64,000 bases of DNA from Cytophagales bacterium (GTDB lineage Bacteria; Bacteroidota; Bacteroidia; Cytophagales; Flammeovirgaceae), in assembly GCA_025056215.1 (NCBI GenBank), contig JANWWC010000001.1, positions 496,001 through 560,000 on the forward strand. The letters are read 5' to 3'. The position numbers and the translations under genes were made by a program. Shown in pieces: positions 52,138 to 55,365 of this stretch (position 1 is its first letter; every line of letters starts with the position of its first letter). Below the pieces are notes generated by a model. It saw only the letters and a program-made list of their open reading frames with translations, was not told the DNA's origin and did not search any database.

Positions 52138-53850
52138 ATGAAGTACTTCATTATTTTATTCATGTTTCCTTTTCAACTCTTTGCACAGAGCGTTTATGTG
52201 CCTTTGAATTCAGACCTTTACCATTTAGTAGATCGATACGAAATTAAAAGAAAAAAAATCAGCGAACATTTTAATAGTAGCGTTCGCCCTTATACGCGCA
52301 AAAGTGTTGTAGCTCTAGTAGATTCTGTTATACAGTCAGAAATTGCCTTAAGCCGCACAGATAAGTTCAACTTGTCTTATTGCTTAATTGATAATAGAGA
52401 ATGGACACTCTCAGATACACTATCGCTTTCTAAAAAATCATTTCCATTTTTTAAGCATCTTTACCGTACGAAAGGAGATTTATATGCTGTCAAAGAAACA
52501 GATTTTGACCTTCATGTAAATCCTGTAGTAGGGTTTCTATACGGAAAAGATAATCTGTACGTTGCTTCCCTTTACACCAATACGAGAGGTGCCGAAATTC
52601 GAGGAATATTAGGAAATAAAGTAGGCTTCTACACTTTTTTAACAGACAATCAAATCAAGTTTCCTTATTACGTAAACGAAAGAATAGCAGAAAGGCGCGC
52701 AATTCCCTCGGAAGGATTCTACAAGATAGAATATATTTCTCGAAGTTCGCCGCGATATGATTTTTTTACTGCCAGAGGCTATCTTACTTTTGAGATTATT
52801 CCCAAAATTACCTCCCTCCAATTCGGACACGACCGTTTTTTTATAGGAAATGGCTACCGTTCTTTGATTTTATCTGATTATGCTCCAAGTTATTTGTTTT
52901 TAAAACTAGATACAAGGGTATGGCGCTTGCATTATACTAACCTATTTACAAGAATGATGGCAAATAACGTGAGAGTTTTAGGAAGGTATCCTCGAAAATA
53001 CTTGGCGCTCCATCAACTCACGACAAACATTACAAATCATCTTTCAGTGAGTATATTCGAATCAGTGGTGTTTAGTCGCCAAGATAGTATGGGAAACAAC
53101 CCTTTAGAAATAGATTATTTAAACCCTATCATTTTTTATCGAGCTGTAGAACATTGGCTCGGAGACCCTGATAATGTCTTATTGGGATTTGATTTCAAAT
53201 GGAATCTTGCCAAAAAGTTCCGAATTTATGGACAAGCAGTGTTAGATGAACTCCTTTTAAAAGAATTTTTCAAACAAACAGGATGGTGGGGAAATAAACA
53301 AGCTCTTCAAATGGGTCTTATTTATGTCGACGTTTTAAAAATAAAAAATTTAGATATCCAGCTTGAACACAACATCGTGCGACCTTTTACTTATACGCAC
53401 TTTGGTATCAACACTCCTTTTATGAACCATCAACACTATAATCAACCCCTTGCACATGCTTTAGGAGCAAATTTTCGAGAGTATATTGGTATTTTGCGCT
53501 ATCAGCCTTTTCCAAGAATCTCGCTGACAGCCAAACAAATTTGGGCTCTACAAGGAAAAGACCAGGCTCATGAAAATTTTGGGAGCGATATTTTTAAAGA
53601 TTATCTCACCCGCTCTCCTGCTCCTAACAGCAATCAACCTGACTACGGACACAAAATTGCCCAAGGCAACCGTACAGTTTTATATTATACAAGCGTGAAT
53701 ATTTCTTACATGATAAAACACAACCTTTTTATAGACTTTCAAACCATAAGAAGAATACAAAATTCTTCTCTTTTGCAGTACAACTACAACAATTTGATAT
53801 GGCAGTTTTCAGTGCGGTGGAACCTTCCCCCGAGACTACATGAGTTTTAA
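52138..53850 (+). CDS. Wzi/RemB-like outer membrane beta-barrel protein
   Basis: A 570-residue exported protein (signal peptide ends QLFAQ, about residue 18) with alternating aromatic and polar strands typical of an outer membrane barrel. LQFGHDRFFIGNGYRSLILSD (about 223-243) resembles the conserved block of Bacteroidota proteins annotated as capsule-assembly Wzi-like or gliding protein RemB-like; FYRAVEHWLGDPDN and GWWGNKQALQMG also fit. A role in surface polysaccharide attachment or gliding is likely but not proven. It ends directly against the convergent frameshifted gene, with no bases between. Confidence 0.65.
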   Translation: MKYFIILFMFPFQLFAQSVYVPLNSDLYHLVDRYEIKRKKISEHFNSSVRPYTRKSVVALVDSVIQSEIALSRTDKFNLSYCLIDNREWTLSDTLSLSKKSFPFFKHLYRTKGDLYAVKETDFDLHVNPVVGFLYGKDNLYVASLYTNTRGAEIRGILGNKVGFYTFLTDNQIKFPYYVNERIAERRAIPSEGFYKIEYISRSSPRYDFFTARGYLTFEIIPKITSLQFGHDRFFIGNGYRSLILSDYAPSYLFLKLDTRVWRLHYTNLFTRMMANNVRVLGRYPRKYLALHQLTTNITNHLSVSIFESVVFSRQDSMGNNPLEIDYLNPIIFYRAVEHWLGDPDNVLLGFDFKWNLAKKFRIYGQAVLDELLLKEFFKQTGWWGNKQALQMGLIYVDVLKIKNLDIQLEHNIVRPFTYTHFGINTPFMNHQHYNQPLAHALGANFREYIGILRYQPFPRISLTAKQIWALQGKDQAHENFGSDIFKDYLTRSPAPNSNQPDYGHKIAQGNRTVLYYTSVNISYMIKHNLFIDFQTIRRIQNSSLLQYNYNNLIWQFSVRWNLPPRLHEF

Positions 53851-55267
53851 TTATTGCACAACAAGTTTATACGAAACTATTTCACGCTCATTGTTCATTT
53901 TTAAAAAATACACATTAGGAACTAGCGTAACAGGAATTCTAATTATATTCTGATTTTCCCATTCAACGTGAAAAAGTGGATTGCCCTTCAAATCAAAAAG
54001 CATCATTTCAATAGGTCCCCCAAAAGAAGGATAGCAAACAATTTCGTCAATCACTAAACTTGAACAAGTTATTTTCTTCCTTTCCGCCGAATTTTCAACG
54101 TAAACCCCCTTCGAAAAGTGTATATTTCCATCATTGTCATAAACGACTACTCGATAGTAAGCATTTCCAGCCTCTTTGTCTAGGTATTCATCATAAGAAT
54201 GCTGATATTCGCTTACAAGAATGGTTTTCCATGAAAAACCGTCATAGCTTTTTTCTATAAGAATTCTTTCTCTATCACCTTTAACTTTCCAAGTAAGTAA
54301 ATTTGCAGATTCTCGCGCTATTACCTTAAACGATAGTATAGAAACATCTAACACTTTATACCCATTCACCCAGGCAGCAAAAGATGGATTGTTAGCATTC
54401 ATATAAGCCTCATCAGCCTGATTAGACGTAGTGCTCGAGCCGCCACCTGTATTAGACACAGAACCACCAATATATAATCCATATGGACTTGAAGAGTTCG
54501 CATTAGTAATCTGATTTCCTCCGCCTGTAAAATTAAAGTTCCCACCTACATACACTTGTCCTCCATTTTGAACTGTAAAATTTGTTCCACCTGTTCCATT
54601 GTCCACTACATTCCCGAAAATAGCCACGCGCGAATTTCTTCTAAACAATGCATCTCCACTATTCATTAAATTGAGATTTCCATAAATTACAAGGTCTGCA
54701 TAAGGAGGAGGAGCTACATTAGTGCCTACTCGCAAATACTCTGAGTTGTTTACAGTTACATTGTTGCTAAACTTAGCTACTCCACCAGGATTGATAGCCA
54801 AGTTAGCGTTTAAAGTGGTATTTCCTGTTACGTTTAAATTCCCATTCACAGTTACGCTACCTCCCCCCGAGTTCGAAAAATTTCCCAATACTGTGAGAGT
54901 TCCATTAATAGTAAGTCCTCCACTTCCAGCGAAAGAAAAGTTTCCTAATACAATCAAATGCCCATTAATTGTCATGCTAGCGCCACTAGAAACCACTGTA
55001 AAATTTCCACTGTCAATAAGAGTAGCGCTTGATGCAATGTTAAAAGCTCCTTCCTCCAAAGTTGTAGTTTACTCCGTTTAAAAAATACATGTTATGGTTT
55101 ACATTAATAGTTCCCCAAGTTTGTCCAGAAATAGGAGGAGCTGTTCCACCCGTCCAATTACTATTTGTAGTCCAATTCCCAGATGTTGCAGAGGTATAGT
55201 GTTGAGCATACAAAGAGAAAAAGCCCGTTAACAAAATGAAACATGATAGTTGAAACAATCTGTACAT
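53851..55267 (-). pseudogene. Surface protein gene split by a single-base frameshift
   Basis: Two adjoining frames form one gene. The 5' part (55267-55040) encodes a signal peptide (LYAQ near residue 22) and an SGNWTTNSNW motif, and stops soon after NYNFGG. The 3' part (from about 55059 to 53851) continues with GAFNIASSATL, a run of INGT/VNGN repeats, a fibronectin-like domain and a C-terminus resembling a T9SS sorting domain (YFLKMNNEREIVSYKLVVQ). Removing one A from the minus-strand AA at 55052-55051 changes GGA-GGA-AGG to GGA-GGA-GGA and gives one frame of 471 residues. The 3' part alone has no signal or ATG start. The repeats and the SGNW motif match those of the giant protein at 37504-46803. 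A sequencing error, recent mutation and programmed shift are all possible. Confidence 0.82.
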
Positions 55268-55365
55268 GATTAAACCAAGTAAAAGCTACGCTTGTAATTA
55301 CGAAGATTTTTAGAATATGTTTGAAAATGAGAAAAAATTTATTTTTTACCTGCTCTGCTTTCTTA

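What the first reader, a model, noticed from the sequence alone, without database searches (positions are those of the whole stretch)
55040..55060. Clean single-base frameshift in a secreted surface-protein gene
The signal-peptide part and the mature part are in different frames, joined at the minus-strand GGAGGAAGGAGC. Dropping one A gives GGAGGAGGAGC and a continuous 471-residue protein. A GGA-repeat at the junction suggests slippage. It could be a sequencing error, a phase-variable switch that turns surface display on and off, or a programmed +1 shift.
Basis: seen in the sequence. Interest (0 to 1): 0.6.

Follow-up and report, generated by a model that had tools for sequence, protein, structure and literature searches.

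The report
Surface-protein gene broken by one base
A gene for a secreted surface protein in a Bacteroidota bacterium is split by a one-base frame change; it most likely is a recently broken gene or a sequence error, and only a small chance remains that the ribosome reads across it.

Summary
A 75-codon frame with a signal peptide (55267-55040, minus strand) ends at TAA; a 402-codon frame (55059-53851), one base over, continues the same protein. In 27 of 28 distinct homologues examined, signal peptide and mature part lie in one unbroken frame; the 28th is cut by a contig end. So the split is a one-base lesion seen only here, in an ordinary type IX secretion (T9SS) cargo-like gene.

There is no simple repeat: Tandem Repeats Finder gives 0 arrays and the longest run is four bases. 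A repeat-driven phase switch is unsupported. A sequence error cannot be excluded, because no reads or sister strains are held. My partial screen of 464 kb of this genome recognised no other split gene besides prfB. Two other T9SS genes look multiply broken, so surface genes seem to decay here.

That resembles the prfB +1 shift site, which this genome also carries. Spacing and stop differ, and no homologue examined is split there. Partial rescue by ribosome slippage is possible but improbable (about 8%).

The parts
55040..55267 (-). First frame: 75 codons, signal peptide (by eye) plus start of the mature part, ends at TAA (55042-55040)
   Evidence: homologue matches
53851..55068 (-). Second frame (+1 relative to the first): 405 open codons and stop; 402 from the TTG at 55059; predicted beta-solenoid, then two beta-rich domains
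   Evidence: (open frame 405); structure model
55040..55068 (-). Overlap zone in which the change of frame must lie
   Evidence: stop 55071-55069 in the second frame, 55042-55040 in the first
55047..55057 (-). GGAGGAAGGAG, with two Shine-Dalgarno-like 5-mers (GGAGG, AGGAG) ending 7 and 1 nt before the TTT codon
55039..55045 (-). TTT-TAA-C: last sense codon, stop and following C of the first frame; a tRNA-Phe slip by +1 would re-pair with TTT (inference)
53854..54018 (-). C-terminal region (residues 348-402 of the second frame) in the place of the T9SS sorting domain; below the family cut-off (13.6 bits against 23)
   Evidence: five homologues above the cut-off

Best explanation
A recent one-base insertion or deletion has inactivated a T9SS cargo-like surface-protein gene that has no close second copy in this genome. 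Translation starts normally, makes a signal peptide and about 50 further residues, and stops at TAA 55042-55040. The stub has no solenoid and no sorting domain and is presumably degraded (inferred). The 402-codon remainder has no signal peptide, and its nearest upstream-end start is a TTG inside the broken zone, so it would not be exported (inferred). Shown: the frame change, and unbroken frames in the relatives examined. Inferred: that it is a real mutation rather than an error, and that it is recent.
For: 27 of 28 distinct homologues carry signal peptide (by eye) and mature part in one frame; the 28th is cut by the contig end. A weaker relative, L032, left out of that count, is also in one frame. 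The second frame has no stop in 402 codons although 161 of 3618 possible single substitutions would make one; neutral drift would give an even chance of a stop after about 16 substitutions, 1.3% divergence, so the lesion is young. The assembly is held as 17 contigs, 99.52% complete, 0.05% contaminated. Of 67 neighbouring same-strand pairs in 464 kb this is the only one I recognised as a split gene. Surface genes seem to decay in this genome: of 36 places with the T9SS sorting domain, 33 have an open frame from a signal-peptide-like start, 2 lie in genes that fall into several frames (L059, L060) and 1 breaks at a run of unknown bases. The C-part of this protein is 16.9-25.5% identical to 22 homologues, while 119 homologue pairs with N-part identity up to 50% average 32.3% (minimum 24.3%); it also misses the sorting-domain cut-off. 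Weakened constraint would fit both. The only other own-genome match to the 402-residue piece is weak and partial (E 3e-5, residues 218-327).
Against: No reads and no second strain: none of the 37 relatives listed is of the same genus. The lesion is single, with no other stop or frame break in the gene, which an error would also give. Of the 67 pairs, only 4 besides the window gene were read (by eye); the other 62 were judged by a listed start codon near the stop, and the screen misses breaks whose first piece is under 40 codons. The divergent C-terminus could equally be a functional variant.
Confidence: 0.55

Rival explanations
1. Sequencing or assembly error: the gene in the organism is intact and the consensus is off by one base.
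For: Single clean lesion and a long downstream frame with normal coding potential; homologues examined are unbroken. PMC3711429 (section on singletons read) expects BLAST-validated singleton frame changes to be sequencing errors rather than genuine indels. No 16S rRNA was found in this assembly, as in many metagenome bins (recalled), though rRNA may also be missing or withheld for other reasons.
Against: The site lacks a long homopolymer (longest run 4), and the partial screen of 464 kb recognised no other split gene apart from prfB, so the indel error rate of this assembly seems low.
Confidence: 0.3
2. Translational recoding, evolved or adventitious: ribosomes at TTT-TAA-C slip +1 with help from the upstream Shine-Dalgarno-like purine tract and make some full-length protein, as in prfB.
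For: The genome's own prfB has AGG-AGA-TAT-CTT-TGA-C; the window gene ends AGG-AGC-TTT-TAA-C. Among 7852 out-of-frame stops from which a +1 slip would return to the gene frame, in 203 long frames, 22 (0.28%) have both a CTT/TTT codon and an SD-like 5-mer within 15 nt. prfB shifting is common in Bacteroidia (523 of 726; PMC8710568, passages). 21 genomes have a poly-T prfB site read by tRNA-Phe (PMC12421855, passages). A +1 lesion in E. coli rpoB is suppressed at 5% (PMC7022156, abstract).
Against: None of the 28 distinct homologues examined has the split. The SD-like 5-mers end 1 and 7 nt from the slip codon, own prfB 4 nt; 10 of the 22 chance sites have a 2-5 nt spacing and this one does not. 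The stop is TAA, not TGA. The 0.28% was computed after seeing the site, and other motif kinds would also have drawn notice.
Confidence: 0.1
3. Phase variation by slipped-strand mispairing that turns surface display on and off.
For: It is a surface-protein gene, a common target class (PMC3711429, section read), and two GGA units sit at the junction.
Against: 0 tandem arrays at score 30 or more in 53800-55300; longest run 4 nt, while 85 runs of 7 or more exist in the window. PMC3711429 uses runs of at least 7 nt as its criterion. No inverted repeat pair within 400 nt in 53800-55300.
Confidence: 0.03
4. Two separate genes: a short secreted peptide and an independent 402-residue protein starting at the TTG.
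For: A TTG start exists 17 nt before the stop codon of the first frame.
Against: Both pieces align to consecutive parts of the same single proteins; the second piece has no signal peptide by eye and shows coding signal directly after the junction.
Confidence: 0.02

Closest known systems
T9SS type A cargo proteins with a Por_Secre_tail sorting domain (TIGR04183 / PF18962)
   Same: Signal peptide, mature beta-rich region and a C-terminal beta-rich domain; 5 of 5 homologues scanned score above the TIGR04183 cut-off
   Different: The window protein's own C-terminus scores 13.6 bits against a cut-off of 23, and the gene is split
prfB (release factor 2) +1 programmed frameshift site
   Same: Purine-rich SD-like tract, pyrimidine codon before a T-initial stop, C after the stop, +1 direction; the genome has a canonical copy
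   Different: TTT-TAA instead of CTT-TGA; spacing 1 or 7 instead of 4 nt by the same measure; no conservation; not a release factor, so no autoregulatory logic
Singleton frameshift genes / frameshift pseudogenes as classed in PMC3711429 (abstract and four sections read)
   Same: Frame change borne out by unbroken homologues, seen in one genome only
   Different: None seen; reads would decide between error and mutation

Membership tests
T9SS type A cargo | N-terminal signal peptide | tested here: met
   By eye in the first frame, same place in 27 of 28 homologues; no predictor was run
T9SS type A cargo | C-terminal sorting domain over the family cut-off | tested here: not met
   TIGR04183 13.6 bits, cut-off 23; no Pfam match; 5 of 5 homologues scanned exceed 23 bits
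T9SS type A cargo | Genome with other such cargoes | tested here: met
   36 places over the cut-off in the own genome; the secretion machinery itself was not searched
prfB-type +1 programmed frameshift | SD-like sequence about three nucleotides before the slippery CTTT | tested here: not met
   5-mers end 1 and 7 nt before TTT, own prfB 4 nt by the same measure; rule from PMC12421855 passages
prfB-type +1 programmed frameshift | Slippery pyrimidine run running into a stop with C after it | tested here: met
   TTTTAAC; the stop is TAA, not TGA
prfB-type +1 programmed frameshift | Conserved across relatives | tested here: not met
   0 of 28 distinct homologues split (one of them lacks its N-terminus)
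prfB-type +1 programmed frameshift | Full-length product made | not testable with these tools
   needs reporter or proteomics
Slipped-strand phase variation | Tandem repeat or homopolymer of 7 or more at the break | tested here: not met
Frameshift pseudogene | Homologues in one frame, lesion not shared | tested here: met
Frameshift pseudogene | Lesion real in the organism's DNA | not testable with these tools
   no reads held; no genome of the same genus among the relatives

The most novel reading that the evidence does not exclude
A gene other than prfB in a Bacteroidota, a group that makes little use of SD sequences in initiation, is partly rescued by SD-assisted +1 slippage at TTT-TAA-C: a chance-born shift site that keeps a broken surface protein in low expression and ties its display to release-factor supply.
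Probability: 0.08. Interest if true: 0.6.

Novelty: new member of a known kind. Interest (0 to 1): 0.15.

Why it matters
As a broken gene it matters little: one more surface protein lost or mis-sequenced. If slippage at the site proved real, it would be a case of a prfB-like shift outside prfB, and would test whether Bacteroidota ribosomes, which rarely use SD sequences for initiation (PMC8710568, abstract and passages), still respond to them during elongation.

Tried and rejected
Phase variation: tandem repeats, direct and inverted repeats within 400 nt (two short direct families, neither at the junction) and run lengths gave nothing at the junction.

Other genes at SD plus shifty-stop sites: 7 of 238 candidate sites in 464 kb carried an SD-like 5-mer. 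Of the 7, 3 are out-of-frame stops inside open genes, 2 show no coding signal in the +1 frame after the stop, 1 is prfB and 1 is this gene. prfB's short first frame has no positive score of its own (-6.1); it is recognised by its family match and motif. A site with the same AGGAGC-TTTTAGC motif at C9:609355 looked exciting but is an out-of-frame stop inside an open gene.

Pfam gave no family for either piece. The structure search gave only weak partial matches, many of them fibronectin type III tandems (TM-score by query about 0.2), so no function is drawn from it. A profile search of solved structures found 0. The first named-genome scan found none; the second, with an alignment of relatives, found 24 loci. 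A sample of 395 genomes of the phylum gave only two genomes besides the own one, one of them already known and one partial match, L094, which was not examined further. A 16S search of the own genome found none, so the anti-SD of this organism was not checked. In the alignment the junction block is misaligned and was not used; only N-part and C-part identities were. L032 (weak) and L094 were left out of the count. Paper searches: T9SS pseudogenes in Cytophagales, 0 papers; phase variation with T9SS and Bacteroidetes, 9 listed, none opened; frameshift errors in metagenome assemblies, 1 listed, not opened.

Full report
What is there. On the minus strand a 75-codon frame (55267-55040) begins with a signal peptide, by eye, and stops at TAA. 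A 402-codon frame, one base over, runs from within that frame to 53851. The second frame is closed upstream by a stop at 55071-55069, so the change lies in 55068-55040. A coding model trained on this genome gives +13.0 for the first frame over the 60 codons before its stop and +16.7 for the +1 frame over the 60 codons after it; the other frames are negative in both stretches.

One gene, not two. In a sample of 390 genomes of the order, the own genome included, 8 match the 402-residue piece at E 1e-8 or better, so 7 of 389 others. In a sample of 395 genomes of the phylum, 3 match: the own, one already seen and one partial. A scan of named genomes gave 24 loci, among them Shiella aurantiaca and Chryseolinea serpens, both Cytophagales. 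The protein of G279 (same order as the window) is identical to that of Shiella aurantiaca (L028 and L095), which places the window in or near that order. Pooling 8 loci (the ninth, weak L032, left out) with the 24 gives 32 loci and 28 distinct proteins. In 27 of 28 the signal peptide (by eye) and mature part share one frame; the 28th (L105) is cut by the contig end. L032 is also in one frame. At the junction L027, L101 and L106 read FGG-[ST]-G-F-N-V-A, with the same number of residues as the window (FGG in the first frame, F-N-I-A in the second), so no residues seem to be missing. The exact base cannot be placed.

The protein. No Pfam family was found. The model of the 402-residue piece (mean pLDDT 78.7, pTM 0.61) has repeated short strands, read as a beta-solenoid, over about residues 6-203, a short helical part and two beta-rich domains. 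Five of five homologues scanned end in a T9SS type A sorting domain over the cut-off. The window protein's end scores 13.6 bits against 23. Its C-part is 16.9-25.5% identical to 22 homologues, against a mean of 32.3% (minimum 24.3%) for 119 homologue pairs with N-part identity up to 50%; its N-part is 39.3-53.4% identical to the same 22. It is therefore cargo-like, but membership is not claimed.

How clean is the genome? It is held as 17 contigs, 99.52% complete. In 400 kb of further sequence plus the window, 337 coding segments gave 67 neighbouring same-strand pairs that could be split genes, the window gene among them. I read four suspicious ones by eye; all looked like unrelated neighbours. 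The other 62 were judged only by a listed start codon near the stop, and breaks with a first piece under 40 codons are invisible to this screen. Of 36 T9SS sorting-domain places in the genome, I read the frame starts of 33 long frames: 32 begin with a signal-peptide-like start and one (L085) breaks at unknown bases. Of the three short frames, L058 looks complete while L059 and L060 fall into several frames. Two L059 pieces match YDG (one of them weakly) and one the sorting domain just below its Pfam cut-off; L060 pieces match only weakly. So surface genes seem to decay here, which makes a real lesion plausible.

Age. 161 of 3618 possible single substitutions in the second frame would make a stop, so an even chance of a stop is reached after about 16 neutral substitutions, 1.3% divergence. 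The lesion is young, or an error.

Phase switch. No tandem array, no inverted repeat pair within 400 nt, longest run 4 nt; GGAGGA occurs 51 times in the window. PMC3711429 (four sections read) takes runs of 7 or more as its criterion. Not supported.

Recoding. The genome's prfB has AGG-AGA-TAT-CTT-TGA-C. A search of 464 kb for CTT or TTT before a stop, with at least 20 codons before and 50 open +1 codons after, gave 238 sites, 7 with an SD-like 5-mer; of these 7 only prfB and this gene are frame transitions by my reading. For out-of-frame stops in long frames the joint feature has a frequency of 22 of 7852. That is suggestive but was computed after the fact. Against it: spacing 1 or 7 nt rather than 4, TAA instead of TGA, and no split in any of the 28 homologues. 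Predicted pairing to a generic anti-SD tail equals prfB's (-9.3 kcal/mol for both), but in the window gene the best pairing uses the distant 5-mer. PMC12421855 (passages) places the slippery sequence three nucleotides after the SD-like tract, and also reports 21 genomes whose prfB slips on poly-T with tRNA-Phe. PMC6321510 (passages) notes that extending the duplex into the E site can raise shifting, so the short spacing is not a full refutation. PMC7022156 (abstract and opening) and PMC4256274 (abstract) show that interrupted bacterial genes can be rescued by slippage, ribosomal in the first and transcriptional in the second.

Verdict. An ordinary one-base frame change: a recent real inactivation (0.55) or a sequence error (0.30), with recoding a minor option (0.10). 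Interest is low. The cheapest test is to look at the reads.

Noticed in passing
L059 (G000:C9:837500-841500): A T9SS surface-protein gene in several frames: YDG-domain pieces and a sorting domain, apparently a multiply broken pseudogene.
   Followed up: partly
L060 (G000:C12:1-6000): Near a contig end, a T9SS-like gene in several frames (weak Ig-like and sorting-domain matches); decay or poor assembly.
   Followed up: partly
L085 (G000:C10:296832-299332): A long T9SS cargo gene whose frame break coincides with a run of unknown bases; a scaffold gap or withheld stretch.
   Followed up: no
L058 (G000:C9:340000-344000): A 171-codon open frame that is little more than a signal peptide plus a T9SS sorting domain, a mini-cargo without an evident passenger domain.
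   Followed up: no
L035 / G000:C9 near 576329 (-): The genome's prfB keeps the canonical +1 programmed frameshift site (AGG-AGA-TAT-CTT-TGA-C).
   Followed up: yes
window 53851-54354 (-): The C-terminal part of the split protein is unusually diverged and has no recognisable sorting domain, although no stop interrupts it.
   Followed up: partly
window 53851-55267 (-): Patchy distribution: no match at E 1e-8 in the 17 genomes of the same family listed, yet good matches in other families of the order; loss or transfer.
   Followed up: no
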